Positions 5,437 to 58,222 of a stretch of DNA of 64,000 nucleotides are shown here, one piece after another. Each line of letters begins with the position of its first letter. Position 1 is the first letter of the stretch. The stretch is taken from contig JAFEKR010000010.1 in assembly GCA_019022495.1 (NCBI GenBank), positions 248,001 through 312,000 on the forward strand, read 5' to 3'. The position numbers and the translations under genes were made by a program. Source of the DNA: Epichloe hybrida. Its lineage: Eukaryota > Ascomycota > Sordariomycetes > Hypocreales > Clavicipitaceae. The notes beneath the pieces were generated by a model. The model was not told the DNA's origin and made no database searches. It saw only the letters and a list, made by a program, of their open reading frames with translations.

Positions 5437-5471
5437 TATAAAATTCTTTCTAGTGCACTTTGCGTACGGTT

Positions 5472-5752
5472 ATAAAAGACTTCCCTTCTATAAAACAGGA
5501 AGGACCCGCGAGATAGAAGCTATTCCCTTCTATAAAAAAGGAATTATTATGGTTATAGAAGACTTCCCTTCTATAAAATAGGAAGCGCATAAGCGATATA
5601 GAAGCATTCCCTTCTATAAAAAGGAAGTTTAGCGAGAATAGAAGCTTTTCCCTTCTATAAAAAGGAAATTCAGCGCGAATAGAAGCTTTTCCCTTCTATA
5701 AAAAGGAATTTCAGTATAAATAGAAGACTTCCCTTCTATAAAATTAGAAGAT
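5472..5752 (+). repeat. Seven hairpin-forming tandem repeats in the Copia A leader
   Basis: Seven copies of a unit of about 40-45 bp are built around TTCCCTTCTATAAAA followed by AGGAA and a spacer ending in TAGAAG. Each core can form a TTCC/GGAA hairpin. The array lies between the primer-binding site and gag. Copia B has the same array with the same apparent copy number at about 34889-35165. Confidence 0.85.
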
Positions 5753-22124: not shown

Positions 22125-22689
22125 GTTATAAGCAGAGTATTGCACTACAATGTGTATTGTATTGTATTGTTTGTATTGTATTGTATTAAATACAATACAA
22201 TACAAAATACAATACAAATAAAATACAATATAAATTATTTTGTAGTAAATACAATAAATACAAATTAATTTGTAGTAACTACACTAACTACAAACAATAT
22301 AAATGTATTGTTAGGTAAAAAAAAAAGTATAACTTTTTATTAACTAAGGTTATTATTAGGATTAATAGAAAATTAGTTAATAGAACCCTTATATTATTAG
22401 CTATTTTATCTAATTAGTTATATAATTTATAATATTATACTATTTTGTTAATTTTACTATAACTAGGGTTATATATAATATTATGACTTTTTAATAATAC
22501 TACTATACTTAATACTTTATTTTACTAATATAGCTTAAAGAAAAACCTTCTTATTATATTATTTACTATTTTTATTAATTGTTTTCTATTTCTATAAATT
22601 ATTATTATTACTTATTTAAAAAAAAACTGTAAACTAAAGTAATTACATAAAATAAACTACTAATTAGCTTACTACAAGTACCTTATTAT

Positions 22690-23660
22690 AGGTTATTATA
22701 GCTTAGAATAGCTTAGAATAGCTTATATTAGCTTAGAATAGCTTAGAATAGCTTATATTAGCTTATGTTAGCTTATATTAGCTTACAATAGCATATATTA
22801 GGTTATAATAGTATATTATAGCTTAAGATAGCTTATACTAGCTTATACTAGCTTAAGATAGCTTATACTAGCTTATACTAGCTTATACTAGCTTACACTA
22901 GCTTAAGATAGCTTATACTAGCTTATACTAGCTTAAGATAGCTTATACTAGCTTATACTAGCTTATACTAGCTTACACTAGCTAATACTAGCGTATACTA
23001 GCTTATACTAGCTTATACTAGCTTAATATAGCTTATAATAACTTATAATAGCTTTAACATAGCTTATATTAGCTTATAATAACTTTATAATAACTTAGAA
23101 CAGCTTAAGATAGCTTAATATAGTTTATATTAGCTTATAATAACTTTAAATAGCTTATACTAGCTTAGAATAGCTTGTAATAGCTTATATTAGCTTCTAA
23201 TAGCTTCTACTAGCTTAGAATAGCTTAGAATAGCTTATAATAGCTTAGAATAGCTTCTAATAGCTTCTACTAGCTTAGAATAGCTTAGGTTAGCTTAGAA
23301 TAGCTTAAAATAGCTTATATTAGCTTCTAATAGCTTCTACTAGCTTAGAATAGCTTAGAATAGCTTATAATAGCTTAGAATAGCTTCTAATAGCTTCTAC
23401 TAGCTTAGAATAGCTTAGGTTAGCTTAGAATAGCTTAGAATAGCTTAGAATAGCTTAGAATAGCTTATATTAGCTTAGACTAGCTTATAATAGCTTATAT
23501 TAGCTTATGTTAGCTTATATTAGCTTATAATAGCATATATTAGGTTATAATAGTATATTATAGCTTACAATAGCTTATAATAGCTTATACTAGCTTATAC
23601 TAGCTTAGAATAGCTTAGAATAGCTTAGAGTAAGTTAGAATAGCTTAGAATAGCTTAAAA
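22690..23660. repeat. 10-bp satellite array (AGCTTANNNT) inside hAT-like element 1
   Basis: About 95 head-to-tail units of AGCTTAxxxT occur, where the variable triplet is GAA, TAC, TAT, AAA, CTA, ACA or GTT. Higher-order blocks recur, for example the AGCTTCTAAT and AGCTTCTACT block at about 23190-23400 is repeated. Each unit contains the near-palindrome TAGCTTA/TAAGCTA. Confidence 0.93.
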
Positions 23661-23872
23661 TACTAATATTACTTAGAATATTATTAGTGTTAAAGTTTAA
23701 TAAAATATATATAACTAATAAATAAATAAAATATAAATACTAGTAATTATAAGTAAATTACTATAGTAAAAGCTATAGTTTTTAATAACTTAGTATTTTA
23801 AGGTTTTTAAAAATATTAATATCATAAAAATGTTTTCTTTTTTATGTTTTTTAAAATAATAATAAAAGTAAG

Positions 23873-24066
23873 ATAATAGTAATAATAGTAATAATAGTAA
23901 TAATAGTAATAATAGTAATAATAGTAATAATAGTAATAATAGTAATAATAGGTAATAATAGTAAGGTTATTAAGGTTATTAAGGTTATTAAGGTTATTAA
24001 GGTTATTAAGGTTATTAAGGTTATTAAGGTTATTAAGGTTATTAAGGTTATTAAGGTTATTAAGGT
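23873..24066. repeat. Adjacent (TAATAG)n and (GGTTATTAA)n arrays
   Basis: There are about 15 units of TAATAG followed without a gap by about 12 units of a 9-bp GGTTATTAA repeat. The same two arrays occur in reverse order and strand at 38110-38357 in element 2. Confidence 0.93.
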
Positions 24067-24084
24067 TAGTTATTAAAGTTATTA

Positions 24085-24210
24085 AATCTGTTATAATAAG
24101 TATATATATATTCTTTACGCTAGATAGCTAATTAAGTAGCTAGTCCTAGTACTCTAACCGCTTAGTTAAGAGGGAAAACCCTATACTAGGAAGAAAAACC
24201 CCCTTATGTC
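24085..24210 (-). other. Conserved unique island with a tRNA-A-box-like motif
   Basis: This short non-repetitive stretch between arrays is identical, as far as I can read, to 37990-38100 in element 2. On the minus strand it reads CTTAACTAAGCGGTTAGAGT, which looks like the D-arm and A box of a tRNA. No convincing B box or cloverleaf follows. It could be a tRNA fragment, a pol III promoter remnant or chance. Confidence 0.4.
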
Positions 24211-25090
24211 TATATACCTTATAATAAGTATAGTATATTATATAAAAGTTAGTCTTACTATTATTTTTAAAAATAAGTTAAACTTATTTCTATAGCTTAT
24301 TTAAGCTATATAAGGTAACTAAAATATACTATTAAGAATCTATTAAAATATTATAAATATTTTCTATTATATTCTTTCTTTATATATTATTATAATAAGA
24401 TATATAAAGTTACTATATATAACTTCTTAAAGCTTTAGAATTATAAAGCTTAAAGTAATATTTAATTAGTTTAAATAGTAAATAAATAGTTTAAGCTTTT
24501 TTTAAGTTCTTATTTTATTAATAATAATATTTGAGTACTAAGTATATAGTCTATTAACTTATAGATATTTATTTAGATTTCTAATTTAATTTAATTATAT
24601 TAGTTTAGGGTATTTTTTAATTAAATTAATTAAATTAATAAAAGAAATATAAAATAATTCCTAATAATAGTAAATAAAATAATTAGAAGGTTTTTCTTAA
24701 AGTTATATTAGTAAAATAAAGTAATAAGTATAATAGTATTATTAAAAAGTTATAATATTATATATAACACTAGTTATAGTAAAATGTTTAAAATAATATA
24801 ATATTATAAATTATATAACTAATTAGATAAAATAGCTAATAATAAAAGGTTTCTATTAACTAATTCTCTTTTAATCCTAATAATAACCTTAGCTAATAAA
24901 AAGTCCCACTTTTTTTTAACCTAACAATACATTTGTATTATTTGTAGTTAGTGTAGTTACTACAAATTAATTTGTATTTAATACAATATAATATAATAAA
25001 TATAAATTTTTTCAAATACAATACAAATACAAAATTTTCCGAAAAAATACAATAAATACAATACAAACAATACTCTGGTTATAAGGCATG

Positions 25091-25293
25091 TGTGAGGCCC
25101 TACTCATAACAACACCCGTAATCACTAGTGCACCCCGCGGGCAGGCCATGTCCTAGGGCTAGGTCTACGTAACACTAGCGAGCCACTAGCTATAAGCTAG
25201 TGACTTATATATATAATATACTTAGACCTAGTAAGCTTTAGTTAATATACTAAAGCCCCCTATACCTCTTACCTAGCTACTATTATTCTTATA
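25091..25293 (+). repeat. 5' LTR of the Gypsy element
   Basis: The repeat is 203 bp, paired with 31623-31825. The outer part keeps CACCCCGCGGGCAGGCC, while the inner part has TATATATAATATA where the 3' copy keeps CGCACGTATAACACA. All differences seen are C-to-T or G-to-A type. Confidence 0.93.
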
Positions 25294-34830: not shown

Positions 34831-34888
34831 GGTTATAAGCCTAGCCTATTACTATAAAATTCTTTCTAGTGCACTTTGCGTATAGTTA

Positions 34889-35165
34889 CAGAAGACTTCC
34901 CTTCTATAAAATAGGAAAGACCTGTGAGATAGAAGCTAATTCCCTTCTATAAAAAGAAATTATTATAGTTATAGAAGACTTCCCTTCTATAAAACAGGAA
35001 GCATATAAGCAATATAGAAGCTTTCCCTTCTATAAAAAGGAAGTATAGTAAGTATAGAAGCTTTTCCCTTTTATAAAAAGGAAATTTAGCGTGAATAGAA
35101 GCTTTTCCCTTTATAAAAAGGAATTTTAGTATAAATAGAAGACTTCCCTTTTATAAAATTAGAAG
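34889..35165 (+). repeat. Seven leader hairpin repeats of Copia B
   Basis: The array matches 5472-5752 of Copia A, with about seven TTCCCTTCTATAAAA-type cores. The preserved number suggests the array is an inherited feature of the family rather than recent slippage. Confidence 0.8.
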
Positions 35166-37094: not shown

Positions 37095-38109
37095 GTAAAG
37101 GACAGAGTATTGTTTGTATTGTATTTATTGTATTTTTTCGGAAAAATTTGTATTTGTATTGTATTTAAAAAAATTTGTATTTATTGTATTATATTGTATT
37201 AAATACAAATTATTTTGTAGTGTAGTTAGTGTAGTAACTACACTAACTACAAATAATACAAATGTATTGTTAGGTAAAAAAAAAAGTGGGACTTTTTATT
37301 AGCTAAGGTTATTATTAGGATTAAAAGAGAATTAGTTAATAGAAACCTTTTATTATTAGCTATTTTATCTAATTAGTTATATAATTTATAATATTATATT
37401 ATTTTAAACATTTTACTATAACTAGTGTTATATATAATATTATAACTTTTTAATAATACTATTATACTTATTACTTTATTTTACTAATATAACTTTAAGA
37501 AAAACCTTCTAATTATTTTATTTACTATTATTAGGAATTATTTTATATTTCTTTTATTAATTTAATTAATTTAATTAAAAAATACCCTAAACTAATATAA
37601 TTAAATTAAATTAGAAATCTAAATAAATATCTATAAGTTAATAGACTATATACTTAGTACTCAAATATTATTATTAATAAAATAAGAACTTAAAAAAAGC
37701 TTAAACTATTTATTTACTATTTAAACTAATTAAATATTACTTTAAGCTTTATAATTCTAAAGCTTTAAGAAGTTATATATAGTAACTTTATATATCTTAT
37801 TATAATAATATATAAAGAAAGAATATAATAGAAAATATTTATAATATTTTAATAGATTCTTAATAGTATATTTTAGTTACCTTATATAGCTTAAATAAGC
37901 TATAGAAATAAGTTTAACTTATTTTTAAAAATAATAGTAAGACTAACTTTTATATAATATACTATACTTATTATAAGGTATATAGACATAAGGGGGTTTT
38001 TCTTCCTAGTATAGGGTTTTCCCTCTTAACTAAGCGGTTAGAGTACTAGGACTAGCTACTTAATTAGCTATCTAGCGTAAAGAATATATATATACTTATT
38101 ATAACAGAT

Positions 38110-38357
38110 TTAATAACTTTAATAACTTTAATAACCTTAATAACCTTAATAACCTTAATAACCTTAATAACCTTAATAACCTTAATAACCTTAATAACCT
38201 TAATAACCTTAATAACCTTAATAACCTTAATAACCTTAATTACTATTATTACTATTATTACTATTATTACTATTATTACTATTATTACTATTATTACTAT
38301 TATTACTATTATTACTATTATTACTATTACTTTATTATTTACTATTATTACTATTAT
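38110..38357. repeat. Adjacent 9-bp (AACCTTAAT)n and 6-bp (ATTACT)n arrays
   Basis: This is the reverse complement of the paired arrays of element 1, with about 14 nonamers and about 19 hexamers. Copy numbers differ between the elements while the flanking unique sequence does not. Confidence 0.93.
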
Positions 38358-38573
38358 CTTACTTTTATTATTATTTTAAAAAACATAAAAAAGAAAACAT
38401 TTTTATGATATTAATATTTTTAAAAACCTTAAAATACTAAGTTATTAAAAACTATAGCTTTTACTATAGTAATTTACTTATAATTACTAGTATTTATATT
38501 TTATTTATTTATTAGTTATATATATTTTATTAAACTTTAACACTAATAATATTCTAAGTAATATTAGTATTTT

Positions 38574-39992
38574 AAGCTATTCTAAGCTATTCTAACTTAC
38601 TCTAAGCTATTCTAAGCTATTCTAAGCTAGTATAAGCTAGTATAAGCTATTATAAGCTATTATAAGCTATAATATACTATTATAACCTAATATATGCTAT
38701 TATAAGCTAATATAAGCTAACATAAGCTATTCTAAGCTAATATAAGCTATTCTAAGCTATTCTAAGCTATTCTAAGCTAATATAAGCTATTCTAAGCTAT
38801 TCTAAGCTATTCTAAGCTATTCTAAGCTATTCTAAGCTATTCTAAGCTATTCTAAGCTAGTCTAAGCTATTCTAAGCTATTCTAAGCTAATATAAGCTAT
38901 TCTAAGCTATTCTAAGCTAGTCTAAGCTAGTCTAAGCTAATATAAGCTATTCTAAACTAGTCTAAGCTAATATAAGCTAGTCTAAGCTAGTCTAAGCTAA
39001 TATAAGCTAGTCTAAACTAGTCTAAGCTAATATAAGCTATTCTAAGCTAATATAAGCTATTCTAAACTAGTCTAAGCTAATATAAGCTATTCTAAGCTAA
39101 TCTAAGCTATTCTAAGCTAATATAAGCTATTCTAAGCTATTCTAAGCTAGTCTAAGCTAGTCTAAGCTAATATAAGCTATTCTAAACTAGTCTAAGCTAA
39201 TATAAGCTATTCTAAGCTAGTCTAAGCTAATATAAGCTATTCTAAACTAGTCTAAGCTAATATAAGCTATTCTAAGCTAATATAAGCTATTCTAAACTAG
39301 TCTAAGCTAATATAAGCTATTCTAAGCTAATCTAAGCTATTCTAAGCTAGTCTAAGCTATTATAAGCTATTCTAAGCTATTCTAAGCTAGTAGAAGCTAT
39401 TAGAAGCTAATATAAGCTATTTTAAGCTATTCTAAGCTAACCTAAGCTATTCTAAGCTAGTAGAAGCTATTAGAAGCTATTCTAAGCTATTATTAGCTAT
39501 TCTAAGCTATTCTAAGCTATTTAAAGTTATTATAAGCTAATATAAACTATGTTAAGCTATCTTAAGCTGTTTTAAGTTATTATAAAGTTATTATAAGCTA
39601 ATATAAGCTATGTTAAAGCTATTATAAGCTATTATAAGCTATATTAAGCTAGTATAAGCTAGTATAAGCTAGTATACGCTATCTTAAGCTAGTGTAAGCT
39701 AGTATAAGCTAGTATACGCTAGTATTAGCTAGTGTAAGCTAGTATAAGCTAGTATAAGCTAGTATAAGCTATCTTAAGCTAGTATAAGCTAGTATAAGCT
39801 ATCTTAAGCTAGTGTAAGCTAGTATAAGCTAGTATAAGCTAGTATAAGCTATCTTAAGCTAGTATAAGCTAGTATAAGCTATCTTAAGCTATAATATACT
39901 ATTATAACCTAATATATGCTATTGTAAGCTAATATAAGCTAACATAAGCTAATATAAGCTATTCTAAGCTATTCTAAGCTATTCTAAGCTAT
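38574..39992. repeat. 10-bp satellite array (reverse AGCTTANNNT) inside hAT-like element 2
   Basis: About 140 units of (A)NNNTAAGCT occur. Several longer-period blocks are visible, for example TCTAAACTAG-TCTAAGCTAA-TATAAGCTAT repeated between 38940 and 39300, showing local duplications of multi-unit segments. The array is roughly 1.4 times the length of the one in element 1. Confidence 0.93.
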
Positions 39993-40582
39993 AATAACCT
40001 ATAATAAGGTACTTATAGTAAGCTAATTAGTAGTTTATTTTATGTAATTACTTTAGTTTACAGTTTTTTTTTTAAATAAGTAATAATAATAATTTATAGA
40101 AATAGAAAACAATTAATAAAAATAGTAAATAATATAATAAGAAGGTTTTTCTTTAAGCTATATTAGTAAAATAAAGTATTAAGTATAGTAGTATTATTAA
40201 AAAGTTATAATATTATATATAACCCTAGTTATAGTAAAATTAACAAAATAGTATAATATTATAAATTATATAACTAATTAGATAAAATAGCTAATAATAT
40301 AAGGGTTCTATTAACTAATTTTCTATTAATCCTAATAATAACCTTAGTTAATAAAAAGTTATACTTTTTTTTTACCTAATAATACATTTATATTGTTTGT
40401 AGTTAGTGTAGTTACTACAAATTAATTTATATTTATTATATTTACTACAAAATAATTTGTATTGTATTTTATTTGTATTGTATTTTGTATTGTATTGTAT
40501 TTTGTATTGTATTGTATTTAATATAATATAATACAAACAATACAAAACAATACACATTGTAGTGCAATACTCTGGTAAAGGA

Positions 40583-42169: not shown

Positions 42170-42220
42170 CTTATATACAGAGTATGTAATGTAATGTAAT
42201 GTAATGTGTAATTATTACAC

Positions 42221-42348
42221 ATTACATTACAATACATTACATTACAATACATTACATTACAATACATTACATTACAATACATTACATTACAATACATTAC
42301 ATTACAATACATTACATTACAATACATTACATTACAATACATTACATT
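42221..42348. repeat. 15-bp subterminal tandem array
   Basis: There are about eight copies of ATTACATTACAATAC next to the left end of element 3. Terminal arrays of short motifs are typical binding sites of hAT transposases, but here the array is present mainly at one end. Confidence 0.9.
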
Positions 42349-43036
42349 CATTATAAATGTAATGTTAGGGTAAAATATAAGTGGGGTATATTAATATCTT
42401 GTAATATTCTTTAGATTTTTCTCTATTAACTTAATGTTGCTATCTTTTATTATTATAATTTAGTTATTTTGTTATAACTTTTTAATATTTAAGCTTATTT
42501 TAACTAATAAGCTATTTATAGGTAGATAGTAGCTAAATATAGTTTATTCTAATAATAAACTATACTATTATTTTTTCTTTAAATTACAAAGCTTTTTTTA
42601 GTTAAGGAACTTTTTTTTTAGATTTACTATCCTTTTTAATATACTTTCTTTACTTAAAATATAATAATTACCTTAAATAAATTTCTTTTTATTATATATA
42701 AATAAGATTAAAACTCTAATAATAATATATTTATATATATATATTTCTTATTATAAATAAGAAATTTTAATATATATAATAAAGAAATTCCTAGCTATAT
42801 AGCTATTTAAGTATAATTATAAGTAATTATATTAACTTTTAAGAGTTTCTAAGCTAAAGAAAAAGTAAGATACCTTAGGAAAGCTAATAAAAAAGGACTT
42901 AACTATTTTATAATAAATATTTATAATATTTATGATATATTTTTATTAATATTAAAGGTATTTAAAAATAAGCTTTAAAATTAAGTTTAATAATATTTAC
43001 TATCTTTAGTTTCCTTTCTTAGTTATATAGTTTCTT

Positions 43037-43640
43037 CTAAAAGTAAGTCTAAAAGTAAGTCTTATTAATTATACTTTATATATAGTTATAGTTTCTTTAC
43101 TTTACTATATAATCTAATCCTAGAAAAGAAATATTATAAAAGTAAGTCTAAAAGTGAGTCTTGTTAATTACCCCTTATATGTAATTGTAGTTTCTTCACT
43201 TTGCTATATAATCTAATCCTAGAAAAGAGATATTATAAAAGTGGGTCTAAAAGTGAGTCCTATTAATCTTCCCTTATATGTAATTATAGTTTGTTTACTT
43301 TACTATATAATTTAATCCTAGAAAAGAGATGTTATAAAAGTGGGTCCAAAAGTGGGTCCTATTAATCTTCCCTTATATGTAATTGTAGTTTCTTCACTTT
43401 TCTATATAATCTAATCCTAGAAAAGAGATGTTATAAAAGTGGGTCTAAAAGTGGGTCTTATTAATTACCCCTTATATGTAATTGTAGTTTCTTCACTTTG
43501 CTATATAATCTAATCCTAGAAAAAAGATATTATAAAAATGGTTCCAAAAGTGGGTCCTATTAATCTTCCCTTATATGTAATTATAGTTTCTTTACTTTAC
43601 TATATAATCTAATCCTAGAAAGGAGATATTTCTTAAAGTA
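43037..43640. repeat. 99-bp minisatellite, about six copies
   Basis: The unit starts at ATAAAAGTGGGTC and recurs at 43136, 43235, 43334, 43433 and 43532, giving an exact 99-bp period. Each unit contains a doubled AAAAGTGGGTC motif, CTTATATGTAATTGTAG and TAATCTAATCCTAG. The central copies keep GTGGGTCC and TCTTCACTTTGC, while outer copies are more AT-rich. The array lies inside hAT-like element 3. Confidence 0.93.
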
Positions 43641-43970
43641 AGTCTAAAAGTAATTATATTAATTATATTATAGCTAATACACTTAGTTATAGGGTTTTTT
43701 CTTAAAAATAAACCTAAGAGATAAGTTTTATTAGTTTTATTAATTATAATTTAGGTAAGAATAGTAATAAGACCTTAGTTTATATTTTTATAAACTTAAT
43801 ATAAACTTTTTAATAGTTAAATTATATTTTTTACTATCTATATCTTATTATATAACCTTAATATTAAAAAATCAAAAATAATTACAAATAATTACAAAAA
43901 TTACATGTAATGTAATGTAATTATTAAGGGTAAGGTGTAATGTAATGTAATGCCATGCTCTGCTTATATA

Positions 43971-53333: not shown

Positions 53334-54842
53334 ATGCTGTCGTCATTGATGCATCATTTTTGGCATCACTGCTGGCATCGGCTGCTGCTTATTTTTTCCA
53401 AGTTGGCCAAAAGCTTTGGAAAGCTCCAAAAGACGCTTGTCAGCTTTGCTCTCCGATCCCTTTCCTTGTCCCGTCGAGGGGAACGGCCAATACTCACAGT
53501 CCACGACTTTCCACCGACCTCGGAGCAAGACGACCAACGTCGGTCTGATTTCATTTCCACGATTTCCTCCGAAAGGATTACGGCTCTAGCCCTGCGCCAC
53601 AGCACACAGCATTCCTGCCGCATCACAAGCCGCGATAGCGGGAGTTACAATGTCAGTTTCATCATTGAATTTGATGATGAAACAAAATGCGTTGTCCGGA
53701 TCCCTATCCTGCCGTTCGTTCACGATCCTTGGAGAAAAGTACTCGGTCATGTTGCTGTTCTAAATTTTCTCAATAAATCAACACAAATTCCAGTCCCTCG
53801 TGTACGTGCATTCGGCCGCAATGTGCAACTCTCAAATGATGGCGGTGGCGAGTATGTTTTCCTTATACTAGACTTCGTCCCCGGTCGAAGTCTTACAAAG
53901 CGCATCCTGTTTGAATCAACGGTTGCGCAGCGAGCCATTTTCTTCTCCCAACTAATTGGAATCCTTGTCGAGTTACGACAGACCAAGTTTCCAGCACTGG
54001 GGTCGCTGGTGTCCGAAACAAAGACGAAGCTTCCGGAAGTTGGTGATTTGCAATCAATACCGCTAAATGAGCTCCGACGTAGCGTCCCGCCGACGACATC
54101 AGTGCGAGAGTACATGGAAAGCCAACTCCGGATAGTCTCCGACTCGCTAGCACTCCCAGTTGCAGGCCAGACCATGGACGACATCAAACTTGAGGTTTTC
54201 GCGGTCCATTTCGTCGGCAAATATCTCCTTGAGGCCGATGCCGATTCCGAAGAAAATGGGTACTCTCTGTACCACTCAGACCTGCGGCTTCCGAATATCA
54301 TCGTCGGCGATGAGCTGCAAATCAATGGTATAATTGACTGGGATGATGCGAGCACAGTTCCCAAGCATTTATTCTCGCCCCCGCCGTGGATCTCCGGTGT
54401 GGACGATAGTAGCATCATGGCATTCCAGAAACTGCACGCCGAGTTCCGCGGCATTCTCAAGGCAACATCCAAAACCAACCCCATCTGCCATGAATTATTC
54501 AAACAGTGGTACAAAGAGCCAAGCGAAGAACCAAGAGAAGCCTTGTACGCTGCTCATATTGTCCGATACCCCACCGAACTTGCAGAGGTCATCGCCCGTT
54601 TTCACGAACATCTAGGGTTGATAGGAAAATTACGCGCCGACATTCACGCCTATTACGAATCAAGCAGCACGGTTCAACAAGAAGTACAAAGACGAGCGGC
54701 GTTGTGCGACGAATACACGAGATACCTTAAAGATCGCGGGCTATATACTGAAACCCAACCATTGGATCTGGAAGAGTTAAGAGCAAAGCTTGAAGGCGCA
54801 ACCAAACGGGCCGAGGAGTTGCTTCGGAATCGGAAGTTGTAG
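53334..54842 (+). CDS. APH-family (aminoglycoside-phosphotransferase-fold) kinase-like protein, 502 aa
   Basis: A single open frame of 502 codons. The N-lobe starts near residue 95 (SGSYNVSFIIEF, then CVVRIP). A linker LILDFVPGRSL at about residue 180 matches the hinge of APH-fold kinases. The catalytic loop HSDLRLPN at residues 314-321 has the Brenner-type HxDxxxxN with base Asp316, and IDWDD (334-338) supplies the metal-binding Asp, so the active site looks intact. The C-terminal 100 residues are helical and charged. Fungal proteins of this group are numerous and mostly of unknown substrate; it should not be called a resistance gene. The start is the first ATG; the first 40 residues are unlike the rest, so a later Met or an unseen 5' exon is possible. 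It converges with the next gene, leaving one base between stop codons. Confidence 0.85.
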   Translation: MLSSLMHHFWHHCWHRLLLIFSKLAKSFGKLQKTLVSFALRSLSLSRRGERPILTVHDFPPTSEQDDQRRSDFISTISSERITALALRHSTQHSCRITSRDSGSYNVSFIIEFDDETKCVVRIPILPFVHDPWRKVLGHVAVLNFLNKSTQIPVPRVRAFGRNVQLSNDGGGEYVFLILDFVPGRSLTKRILFESTVAQRAIFFSQLIGILVELRQTKFPALGSLVSETKTKLPEVGDLQSIPLNELRRSVPPTTSVREYMESQLRIVSDSLALPVAGQTMDDIKLEVFAVHFVGKYLLEADADSEENGYSLYHSDLRLPNIIVGDELQINGIIDWDDASTVPKHLFSPPPWISGVDDSSIMAFQKLHAEFRGILKATSKTNPICHELFKQWYKEPSEEPREALYAAHIVRYPTELAEVIARFHEHLGLIGKLRADIHAYYESSSTVQQEVQRRAALCDEYTRYLKDRGLYTETQPLDLEELRAKLEGATKRAEELLRNRKL

Positions 54843-55242: not shown

Positions 55243-56524
55243 TATTGGCAGGGTTCGCTCTCGAGACGTTGCTGTCCAGACTTTTCACTTTTTGTATCTT
55301 TTGCAGATTCAAAAATGGGAGGCCGTCGCCCTGATCTGATTGTGAGGTTGCAGTTTGTTGTTGAAGGCCACAGCTCGCATAGCCCTGCCCGCGTGCGGGG
55401 TATTTGCTAATAGCCCTCTGCCACGTTGCACCGTGAGCCATTTAGCCCAGTGCACAGGAAGAGAGAGGTGTGACCCCTTGGTATTGATTGATGAAAGGAG
55501 ACCTAATTACGAGTTGAAACCAGAAATCTTTATCTAAGGAGTACGTCTATGTCACGGCAGCATCCCCAGAGCCCCCAAACCCTTCGAGAATCGACGAACC
55601 ACAAAGATGCGCTCAAGACGATACCAGAAAAAAATGCGGAATGCAAATGAATGTTTAGAAAGCCAGCCAGAGCAGCAGCACTCTTTTGAAGTCATAGTAT
55701 CTATTTTCGATCATTCTATTTTTACCTCCTTTTTACGCTCTGCGCTCTGCGGTTTCTATTCTTGTCCTTCCACTAAGATCCACAGAGAGGTATCTCATTG
55801 TTAATGATTGTGCAATGGATTAATTGGACCTCTTTACTCCCATGCTTATTATCTAGCTTCTCCTACGCTGACCAAGACACAAGCAAGTGCTCGTTCAATG
55901 CTTGAATTCATGAAGCAAAAACAGTACGTGATCCATATGGTGAGGCTGCTTGAGGTTGAGCTGTTGGTGCGACTTTTCTGAGTTTTGTCATGAAGTGTGG
56001 GCGGCGGTTCCACTGTAAAGTCCGGCCGTCCTCCTTTTAGTTATGAGCAGCCATTAACTTTAATAAAGCATACACACTTGCTGTGCGGCCTTGGATTTGT
56101 GCTCGTTTGGTCATCCATCGTCCGACCCCCAGCCGACCGTTGCCTCAGCCATCTCAGCCATCGGCATCACGTGTCACACATGCCACTCCGGAAACGCCGG
56201 CCGCAACACGCACACAGCAGCCACGTGCTTAAAATCAGATGATCCGGATTCCGGACTTTGGTTGGGGCCCAGTGAAGCTTCGCAACCCAGACTTCACACG
56301 CATGATTGCACCAGACCCCGAATTTCGTGCCGAGCATATTGCAGCTGGGAATGACCAGAGTCCGCGCCCCTTCCAGTCATGAGTCCTGACAAATACAGGC
56401 CGCCGCCCAAATAGCTTGCAAAATACGACGATTTCAGGACACTGAAGCGGTCGTAACCAACAACTGTTACTAATTCGTGTTAAAGTTGTTTTGGAGTGAA
56501 GCCAATTCTCGGGGGTCAACAAAC
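55243..56524. other. Intergenic region
   Basis: Only short open frames without recognisable similarity are present. The right end should contain the promoter of the FAD dehydrogenase. A short minus-strand frame at 55208-55441 could belong to the coiled-coil gene. Confidence 0.5.
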
Positions 56525-58222
56525 ATGTCAGAAGGAACGAAGCCCGTCATCATCATCGGGCATGGCTTGGCCGGCCTGGTGGCTGCCTTTGAGCTCTCGA
56601 AGCGCAAAGTCCCCACAATCATTGTCGACCAGGAAAATGCCAACAACGTCGGAGGACAAGCGTTCTGGTCGCTGGGTGGACTATTCGTGGTCAATTCGAC
56701 AGAGCAGCGACGCGTCGGAATCAAGGACTCTCGCGAGCTCGCTATGCAGGACTGGCTCAACTCTGCCCAGTTTGATCGCGAGAAGGAGGACCACTGGCCG
56801 CGACAATGGGCCAAAGCATTCGTCGACTTTGCCACGGACGAGATGGAAAACTATGTCAAGGGCCAGGGCTTGGGGTTCATGTTCAACGTTGGCTGGGCAG
56901 AAAGGGGTGACGGCAGGGCCGACGGTCATGGCAACTCTGTCCCAAGGTTCCATCTCACCTGGGGCACCGGGCCCGAGGTGGTGCGCATCTTCAAGGAGCC
57001 CGTTTCGAGAGCTGCGCAGGACGGCATCGTCCAATTCAGGCACCGCCATGCCGTCGACGAACTCATCATTGACGAGAAGACAGGGAGAGCTACGGGCGTC
57101 CGGGGCCGCGTTCTGGAGGACGACGACTCGGCCCGCGGTGTCAAGTCGTCCCGCACCGCCATCGATACATTCGAGCTGCACGGCTCCGCCATTCTCGTTT
57201 CGTCTGGCGGCATCGGTGGAAATGTCGAGGCTGTGAGAGCAGCGTGGCCTGTCGATCGCCTCGGACCCAAGGTACCGGAGAATTTCGTCGTCGGAGTCCC
57301 TGCTCACGTTGATGGTCGGATGGTCGGCATCTCGGAGATGGTCGGGGCAAACGTCATCAATCGGGACCGCATGTGGCACTACACCGAGGGCTTGCAGAAT
57401 TGGAACCCCATTTGGCCGAATCACGGCATTCGGATTCTACCGGCACCATCGTCTCTATGGCTCGACGCCTCAGGCAAGAGATTGCCGCCGCATCTGTTCC
57501 CTGGCTCGGACACGTTGGGTACGTTGAGGCATATTTGCAGCACGGGGCACGACTACACGTGGTTCATTCTCAATCAGACCATCATTGCCCGGGAATTCGG
57601 CCTCTCTGGATCTGAACAGAATCCCGACATCACAGGCAAAAGCCTATGGCAGCTTCTTTGCCGGACTCTCAACGGCAAGGGCCCCGTTCCCGTACAGAAT
57701 TTCATGAAGCACGGCAAAGACTTCATCGTCAAGGACACTCTTGAAGAGCTCGTCCAAGGCATGAACAAGCTGGCTCTGGAGCGTCGAGGGCCGGCGCTGG
57801 ACTTTGAAAAGATCAAGAAGGTGGTCGAGACCAGGGACTCTCAATTCCACAACGCCTACTCCAAGGACGCACAGGCCATGCTCATCAGCAATGGCCGATC
57901 CTACTGGCCCGACAGAATTTCACGAGTGGCGAAACCGCATGGCATTCTCGACAGATCCAAGGGTCCGCTGATCGCCGTGCGCCTCAACCTCCTCACGCGC
58001 AAGACGCTTGGGGGCATCGAAACCAATTTACAGAGCAACGTAATGCGTGCAGATGGGACGCCGTTCCCCGGGCTATACGCCGCGGGGGAAGTGGCCGGCT
58101 TCGGTGGCGGGGGTGTACATGGCTACAATTCACTCGAAGGCACGTTTTTGGGCGGATGTATCTTTTCAGGTCGCGCCGCCGGACGGGCCATGGCTGACGA
58201 GGTTGCCGGGCCTTTGACATGA
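56525..58222 (+). CDS. FAD-binding dehydrogenase, fumarate-reductase/ketosteroid-dehydrogenase fold, bacterial-type (COG3573-like), 565 aa
   Basis: An intronless gene of 565 codons. The Rossmann strand VIIIGHGLAGL puts GxGxxG at residues 12-17, followed by IIVDQEN, where FAD ribose is bound. Next come the conserved GGQAFWSLGGLF and RRVGIKDSRELA blocks and HGNSVPRFHLTWGTGP. The C-terminus has the second FAD-contact region GLYAAGEVAGFGGGG and HGYNSLEGTFLGGCIFSGRAAG. These blocks and the length match a group of predicted FAD dehydrogenases best known from actinobacteria and other bacteria. The substrate is unknown; relatives in the wider FAD_binding_2 family act on steroids or fumarate. The start at 56525 is preferred over an upstream in-frame ATG (56477) because it has AAAC before the ATG and leads straight into the Rossmann strand. 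There is no signal peptide, so a cytosolic location is likely. Confidence 0.9.
   Translation: MSEGTKPVIIIGHGLAGLVAAFELSKRKVPTIIVDQENANNVGGQAFWSLGGLFVVNSTEQRRVGIKDSRELAMQDWLNSAQFDREKEDHWPRQWAKAFVDFATDEMENYVKGQGLGFMFNVGWAERGDGRADGHGNSVPRFHLTWGTGPEVVRIFKEPVSRAAQDGIVQFRHRHAVDELIIDEKTGRATGVRGRVLEDDDSARGVKSSRTAIDTFELHGSAILVSSGGIGGNVEAVRAAWPVDRLGPKVPENFVVGVPAHVDGRMVGISEMVGANVINRDRMWHYTEGLQNWNPIWPNHGIRILPAPSSLWLDASGKRLPPHLFPGSDTLGTLRHICSTGHDYTWFILNQTIIAREFGLSGSEQNPDITGKSLWQLLCRTLNGKGPVPVQNFMKHGKDFIVKDTLEELVQGMNKLALERRGPALDFEKIKKVVETRDSQFHNAYSKDAQAMLISNGRSYWPDRISRVAKPHGILDRSKGPLIAVRLNLLTRKTLGGIETNLQSNVMRADGTPFPGLYAAGEVAGFGGGGVHGYNSLEGTFLGGCIFSGRAAGRAMADEVAGPLT

What the first reader, a model, noticed from the sequence alone, without database searches (positions are those of the whole stretch)
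22133..25077. hAT-like foldback element packed with satellite arrays
The ends CAGAGTATTG/CAATACTCTG and the exact 8-bp duplication GTTATAAG are hAT hallmarks. But the arms are more than 400-bp inverted repeats, and the body is mostly three different tandem arrays with no transposase. hAT non-autonomous elements usually have short inverted repeats. Long arms with internal tandem repeats are known from foldback elements of other superfamilies. The combination looks like an undescribed class of fungal element that carries satellite DNA from place to place.
Basis: partly seen in the sequence, partly recalled or inferred. Interest (0 to 1): 0.85.

Follow-up and report, generated by a model that had tools for sequence, protein, structure and literature searches.

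The report
Gene-less hAT transposon carrying satellite arrays
This is a jumping-DNA element of a fungal genome that has lost its own mobility gene but kept the ends and the repeat arrays of a gene-bearing hAT transposon found in the same genome, so it carries small satellite arrays from place to place.

Summary
Window 22133-25077 has CAGAGTATTG/CAATACTCTG tips, exact 8-bp duplications, about 400-bp inverted arms and three tandem arrays. A second intact copy lies at 37103-40574. Exact duplications flank 9 of 15 family elements examined (one more has one mismatch, five do not match). Forty scored genome copies of the second copy's host repeat lack the insert.

It is a hAT element, but not a separate class. 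The genome holds a 7,755-bp element with the same right tip, the same left tip but for one C-to-T change, its own exact duplication, and a hAT dimerisation exon inside. Left end (read in a sister copy): LT-LA-SatA-U1-SatB-exon. Right end: SatA-U1-SatB-U2b-RA-RT. Collapse across the two direct SatA-U1-SatB blocks would give the window element, apart from a SINE-like insertion and array growth. Arms and satellites are therefore most likely inherited.

Subterminal hexamers differ between hAT groups (CACTAC, CAATAC, CATTAC). The window family differs from its gene-bearing relative partly in that hexamer, which may decide which transposase moves it.

The organism is probably an Epichloe. No intact transposase was read; no CAATAC gene-bearing parent with these arms was found.

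The parts
22125..22132 (.). 8-bp target site duplication, left (GTTATAAG)
25078..25085 (.). 8-bp target site duplication, right (GTTATAAG)
22133..25077 (+). e1, non-autonomous hAT element, 2945 bp
22133..22299 (+). LT: left tip CAGAGTATTG and subterminal region, CAATAC hexamers (10 in the first 200 bp)
22255..22679 (+). left inverted arm (includes LA); LA 86% identical to L059 over 299 bp, 87% over a trimmed 309-bp part
22682..23660 (+). SatA, 10-bp array TAGCTTANAN; the block between LA and U1 is 117-3598 bp long in 17 copies
23661..23872 (+). U1, unique block, also found 3' of the hAT exon in 20 of 31 hAT loci
23855..23964 (+). SatB, 9-bp array AATAGTAAT
23962..24068 (+). SatC, 9-bp array TAAGGTTAT; SINE-less relatives hold about one unit
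24105..24217 (-). SINE-like insertion (about 115 bp), flanked by TTATAATAAGTATA at 24091-24104 and 24219-24232; empty site in L039, L047, L050, L060 and the 2016-bp element
24218..24556 (+). U2b, unique block, 95% identical to the right half of hAT-A
24557..24980 (-). right inverted arm (includes RA), RA 90% identical to hAT-A
24911..25077 (-). RT: right tip and subterminal region with CAATAC hexamers (4 in the last 200 bp)
37103..40574 (-). e2, second intact copy, 3472 bp, duplication GTAAAGGA at 37095-37102 and 40575-40582

Best explanation
e1 is a non-autonomous hAT transposon. Shown: the family inserts with 8-bp duplications; a 7.75-kb element with matching tips, its own 8-bp duplication and an internal hAT exon exists; the two ends of such elements match e1 block by block; the left end (read in one copy) and the right end (read in another) carry SatA-U1-SatB in the same orientation. 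Inferred: the family arose when the two direct blocks of a hAT-A-like parent recombined, or mispaired during repair after excision, deleting the gene and leaving LT-LA-SatA-U1-SatB-U2b-RA-RT, much as an LTR element collapses to a solo LTR. Inferred: it is moved in trans by a hAT transposase that reads the 10-bp tip and the subterminal hexamers. The 10-bp array grows and shrinks and is carried along.
For: 8-bp duplications: exact in 9 of 15 family elements (E1, E2, L039, L042, L044, the second element of L047, L048, L053, L054), one mismatch in L052; also exact in the 2016-bp relative (ACGGTCGG), the 410-bp relative (GATATAGT) and the 7755-bp hAT-A (CCTATATC). Empty site of e2: 40 of 40 scored matches (of 1169 candidates) run through the join, query 389-799/800. 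hAT-A: left tip C1:6917956, dimerisation domain 6919494-6919688 (exon region also), right tip 6925710. L060 is colinear with e1 from SatA to RT. L059 has LT-LA-SatA-U1 and then the hAT exon. L059 614-1004 and L060 137-530 are direct repeats at 90%. Module identities e1 to hAT-A: LA 87, U1 94, U2b 95, RA 90%. Young family: the 40 scored arm matches (own copy included, of 1132 candidates) are 95-100% identical to the query; 421 left-tip matches with up to 3 mismatches, 0 for the reversed pattern. SatA block 117 to 3598 bp in 17 copies whose LA matches are 97.6-100%.
Against: Five of 15 elements lack matching duplications, and 7 of 20 fetched loci had no pairable right tip and were dropped. The exon read in L059 has a stop. 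e1's hexamer (CAATAC) differs from hAT-A's (CACTAC); the one CAATAC hAT end seen (L022) gave no arm match, and its best paralogue is only 90% identical, so it has probably not moved lately. The crossover point of the collapse could not be located: U1 of the 2016-bp relative is 99% and 98% identical to the two hAT-A copies.
Confidence: 0.78

Rival explanations
1. e1 came first: a gene-less foldback element gained a hAT gene, or two gene-less elements came to flank one, and hAT-A is the composite.
For: Gene-less copies seem to outnumber gene-bearing ones: 1132 arm candidates with 40 scored, all 95-100%, against 15 exon-region matches over at least 557 of 602 bases, own copy included. A composite would also give direct SatA-U1-SatB blocks on both sides.
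Against: SatA and U1 lie 3' of the exon in 22 and 20 of 31 hAT loci, although outside L059 and two neighbouring elements (L030, L023) the arms give only weak matches of about 70% there. So gene plus satellite looks older than the close arms. hAT-A has one duplication pair around the whole 7755 bp.
Confidence: 0.12
2. A foldback element of another superfamily (P/Galileo-like or Mutator-like) that only resembles hAT.
For: Long arms with tandem repeats are known from Galileo (P superfamily) and Tetris (PMC4168063; PMC4079207). Tetris has 8-9 bp duplications.
Against: An element with the same tips and blocks holds a PF05699 exon inside one 8-bp duplication pair. A CAGAG(C/G)(A/T)TTG tip stands 3' of the exon in the right orientation in 14 of 30 hAT loci.
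Confidence: 0.03
3. Independent growth: the satellites are host microsatellites that expanded inside a chance foldback, without relation to a transposase.
For: AT-rich surroundings; array lengths vary freely.
Against: With the threshold used (4 or more units), the 10-bp array occurs in the window only inside the two elements, and in 22 of 31 hAT loci 3' of the exon on the strand opposite to the gene.
Confidence: 0.05

Closest known systems
Ac/Ds-type hAT families (PMC3260210, start of abstract seen in a listing)
   Same: shared tips and subterminal repeats; derivatives made by internal deletion and moved only with the autonomous element
   Different: here a pair of direct satellite blocks flanks the gene, and the derivatives keep about 400-bp arms and arrays of up to kilobase size
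Galileo, P superfamily (PMC4168063 passages; PMC3688188 abstract)
   Same: long inverted ends, tandem repeats in some copies, copies with and without the gene; the repeats hold transposase binding sites
   Different: transposase superfamily differs; here the large array is a direct block, not part of the inverted arm
Tetris, Drosophila virilis (PMC4079207, abstract and section 10)
   Same: gene-less foldback, tandem repeats of variable number, 8-9 bp duplications
   Different: no autonomous partner is reported in the parts I read; monomer about 220 bp; here a gene-bearing relative is in the same genome and the main unit is 10 bp
Epichloe MITEs (PMC6218096 passages)
   Same: non-autonomous elements with an unnamed mobiliser in what is probably the same fungal genus
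   Different: the window element is 2.9 kb with arrays; but a 410-bp element with the same tip exists here

Membership tests
hAT superfamily | 8-bp target site duplication | tested here: met
   exact in 9 of 15 e1-family elements, 1 more with one mismatch, 5 without
hAT superfamily | short terminal inverted repeats with CAG...CTG tips | tested here: met
   10-bp perfect tips in e1 and e2; similar tips 3' of the exon in 14 of 30 hAT loci
hAT superfamily | hAT transposase in an element with the same ends | tested here: met
   hAT-A, 7755 bp, PF05699 exon inside; only the C-terminal exon was seen, and the one read has a stop
hAT superfamily | intact catalytic residues of the transposase | not tested
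hAT superfamily | duplication consensus nTnnnnAn (recalled) | tested here: inconclusive
   T at position 2 in 7 of 12, A at position 7 in 6 of 12
foldback elements (Galileo/Tetris type) | long inverted arms | tested here: met
   399 bp at 88%, 497 bits versus at most 47.3 in 60 shuffles
foldback elements (Galileo/Tetris type) | tandem repeats inside both inverted arms | tested here: not met
   SatA is a single block inside the left arm of e1; in hAT-A the blocks are direct
MITE | short length (under about 0.8 kb, recalled) | tested here: not met
   2945 and 3472 bp

The most novel reading that the evidence does not exclude
The hAT transposons of this genome write a one-word address in their subterminal repeats (CACTAC, CAATAC or CATTAC), each read by a different transposase. 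Gene-less satellite elements spawned by collapse across built-in direct satellite blocks change master by rewriting that word in concert at both ends: CACTAC in hAT-A has become CAATAC in the window family, with tip and arms kept. The 10-bp array, one unit per helix turn, would be part of the same recognition or bending system.
Probability: 0.3. Interest if true: 0.82.

Novelty: new variant of a known kind. Interest (0 to 1): 0.62.

Why it matters
It gives a gene-bearing partner for a foldback-with-satellite element, which the parts of the Tetris paper that I read do not have, and a simple route from a full hAT to a gene-less satellite carrier. The Epichloe festucae genome paper calls it an open question which elements mobilised that genome's recent MITEs (PMC6218096); the shared tips name a candidate that can be tested directly. 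If the hexamer is an address, it would explain how parasites of transposons switch hosts.

Tried and rejected
tRNA scan of the window: none. Rfam: 14 microRNA-like matches, all below gathering scores, in the AT-rich left end and in SatA. The idea that SatC is the tail of the SINE was rejected: the duplication TTATAATAAGTATA closes before SatC, and SINE-less relatives hold about one SatC unit. Comparing the places of left tips (100 listed of 421) with hAT exons to find a CAATAC gene-bearing parent gave no clean case. Empty site for e1: the left repeat matches 1-254/256 and the right repeat 253/256-500, and no scored hit spans the whole 500-bp join, so it is only weak support. The paper search for tip 10-mers returned 281 papers, 10 listed; by title and abstract start none of the 10 is a transposon paper; uninformative. 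Homologue search with a 115-aa hAT exon gave 3 short proteins; the one with a name is from a thrips. A reversed-sequence control of the e1 blocks against the hAT loci gave only weak hits, at most 43.7 bits (U1) against 147-321 bits for all but the two weakest true U1 matches.

Claims of novelty rest on searches of an open-licence library only, whose listings I saw in part. A 2011 paper on Epichloe MITEs (recalled; DOI tried) is not held, so its families could include these tips.

Full report
The element. The window stretch 22133-25077 is 2945 bp, begins CAGAGTATTG and ends CAATACTCTG, and is flanked by GTTATAAG on both sides. Its ends are inverted arms (399 bp at 88%, 497 bits; best of 60 shuffles 47.3 bits). 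Inside lie a 10-bp array, two 9-bp arrays and unique blocks. I name the parts LT, LA, SatA, U1, SatB, SatC, SINE, U2b, RA, RT. A second intact copy, e2, lies at 37103-40574 on the other strand, 3472 bp, with duplication GTAAAGGA.

A young, mobile family. The genome (79.9 Mb, 156 contigs; the window is C2:248001-312000) holds 1019 exact CAGAGTATTG sites against 42 for the reversed pattern, and 421 matches to the 27-bp left tip with up to 3 mismatches against 0 for the reversed pattern. The left-arm query had 1132 candidates; the 40 scored, own copy included, are 95-100% identical. I fetched 20 loci around exact left tips. Counting E1 and E2, 15 elements could be paired with a right tip; 7 fetched loci (L040, L043, L046, L051, L055, L057, L058) could not and were dropped. 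Of the 15, 9 have an exact 8-bp duplication, one has one mismatch and five do not match (4 to 8 mismatches; L041, L045, L049, L050, L056). For L047 the second element in the locus was used. A joined-flank query for e2 found 40 of 40 scored matches (of 1169 candidates) running through the insertion point at 91-94% identity: the empty site. For e1 the two flanks belong to two different repeats that meet 4-6 bp from the insertion point, and no scored hit spans the whole join.

Which superfamily. PF05699, the hAT dimerisation domain, has 127 matches in the genome. In the 30 best loci, a CAGAG(C/G)(A/T)TTG tip followed by short repeats stands 3' of the exon in the right orientation in 14. With L059 added, 22 of 31 loci carry the SatA array 3' of the exon and 20 of 31 carry U1 there, on the strand opposite to the gene; 9 and 11 do not. 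These loci are related copies, some near duplicates, so the counts are not independent. Close arms are found at L059, and at L030 and L023 in what look like neighbouring elements; elsewhere the arms match only weakly, about 70% over 100-250 bp, which may mean that arms of some kind are older. With the threshold used, SatA occurs in the window only inside e1 and e2.

The gene-bearing relative. L059 (C1:1142600-1144300) has tip CAGAGTATTG, an arm 86% identical to LA, SatA, U1 at 93% and then a hAT exon with one stop. A query from its end had 1627 candidates, 40 scored; a query from its exon region gave 15 matches over at least 557 of 602 bases at 81-100%, own copy included. Five pairs of end and exon region lie 1.03-1.24 kb apart in the right orientation, and a sixth 2.25 kb apart (C1:1142669, C1:6917957, C102:2754258, C2:1093011, C24:702413 where only part of the exon region follows, C102:3663332). 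Only the 40 scored ends could be compared. At C1:6917957 a right tip lies at 6925710. I read that right end (L060): SatA-U1-SatB-U2b-RA-RT, colinear with e1. The left flank reads CCTATATC before TAGAGTATTG, the right flank CCTATATC after CAATACTCTG. So 7755 bp moved as one unit with the exon inside. I call it hAT-A. Its left tip carries a C-to-T change. Two more spans of similar length are suggested by tip and exon places only (C13:342851 to about 350.6 kb; C1 about 6055.7-6063.3 kb); they were not read.

How e1 arose. In hAT-A the block SatA-U1-SatB occurs at both ends in the same orientation (L059 614-1004 and L060 137-530, 90% identical); the two ends were read from two copies and the ~5 kb between was not read. 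Deletion between such direct blocks leaves LT-LA-SatA-U1-SatB-U2b-RA-RT, which is e1. A 2016-bp relative (L001/L002, duplication ACGGTCGG) has the same order. Further gene-less elements inside L041, L046, L048 and L054 are, where measured, 96% (LA), 99-100% (U1), 97-100% (U2b) and 92-99% (RA) identical to hAT-A, while e1 is 87, 94, 95 and 90%. This suggests at least two separate collapses; that is inference. The collapse itself, by recombination or by faulty repair after excision, is also inference.

The satellites. The block between LA and U1 is 117 to 3598 bp in 17 copies whose LA matches are 97.6-100% identical; the longest (L050) holds about 1.5 kb without a module match. In e1 and e2 the first seven bases of the unit are 88-100% conserved while positions 8 and 10 are 43-57%; in L060 positions 8 and 9 are 55%. 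In the arrays of the 30 hAT loci, however, all ten positions are 80-100%, so the contrast is not general. TRF reports 0% indels. A 10-bp period is about one helix turn; a role in binding or bending is a lead only. Galileo is a precedent for transposase sites in tandem repeats of long ends (PMC3688188, abstract); Hermes and Kat1 for subterminal repeats (PMC10368747, PMC4763223, passages).

The hexamers. CACTAC, CAATAC and CATTAC were counted in 200 bp of 13 ends. Twelve use mainly one: E1 CAATAC (10 and 4, against CACTAC 1 and 0), hAT-A CACTAC (9 and 6, against CAATAC 1 and 2), L022 CAATAC, L020 and L037 CATTAC, L009, L012, L013, L015 and L026 CACTAC; L028 has none of them. In the alignment of the right ends, e1 and hAT-A match at 120 of 154 columns; 10 of the 34 mismatches are T in e1 and G in hAT-A, and by my reading four of the seven mismatches in the first 56 columns turn GTAGT into GTATT. 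The other mismatches, many A/T, lie in the poorly aligned inner part. At the left end, 131 of 179 columns match and the mismatches are mixed. Tips like e1's but with GTAGTG (17) or GTAATG (3) also appear among the 100 places listed of 421; their bodies were not read.

A passenger. A SINE-like unit of about 115 bp sits in e1 at about 24105-24217 on the minus strand, flanked by TTATAATAAGTATA twice; L039, L047, L050, L060 and the 2016-bp element have the empty site. It has 511 first-look candidates in the genome, of which 40 were scored, e1-family copies included.

Organism. A window protein at 56477-58219 is 97% identical to one of Epichloe bromicola; another at 53334-54839 has its best named match in Metarhizium rileyi at 69%. 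The genome is thus probably an Epichloe; the window has an AT-rich part (about 2-44 kb) beside a GC-balanced part. Winter et al. 2018 describe such blocks in E. festucae and leave the mobiliser of its MITEs open (PMC6218096, passages). Among the 100 tip places listed, ten pairs are 409-410 bp apart; the one read, L005, has duplication GATATAGT. These are MITE-sized elements with hAT-A's tip.

Verdict. Observation confirmed, hAT reading supported, 'new class' not supported. What is new, as far as my searches of an open library reach, is the hAT setting in a fungus, the gene-bearing partner and the collapse route. The address idea is the bold part and remains untested.

Noticed in passing
L005 1501-1910 (C1:462636-463045): A 410-bp element with the same CAGAGTATTG tips and an exact GATATAGT duplication; ten such 409-410 bp pairs among the first 100 tip places.
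   Followed up: partly
window 24105-24217; L041 2534-2649; L044 7699-7795: A short SINE-like repeat with A-box-like letters (recalled), varying T/A-rich 3' ends and a 14-bp duplication in e1; 511 first-look candidates in the genome.
   Followed up: partly
L044 and L049, right flanks: Two family copies on different contigs share 1644 identical bases of right flank (then about 95% to 2.9 kb) plus the last 401 bases of the element, while their left flanks do not match: ectopic exchange or conversion at the element.
   Followed up: partly
window 25078-25092: e1 sits 4-6 bp from the meeting point of two other high-copy repeats.
   Followed up: partly
G000 C24:701572-701778 and C24:711351-711750: Two parts of a hAT-A exon region lie 9.6 kb apart in opposite orientation with a few shared bases at the break; they may be one split copy or two copies.
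   Followed up: no
window 42219-42353: Array of 15-bp units ACATTACATTACAAT, made of CATTAC-type hexamers; may be the end of another hAT type.
   Followed up: no
window 5468-5744 and 34881-35159: Two related arrays of about 41/83-bp units with GAAGACTTCCCTTCTATAAAA.
   Followed up: no
window 43038-43667: 99-bp tandem array holding TAAAAGTGGGTCTAAAAGTG, letters that also occur inside the 410-bp element.
   Followed up: no
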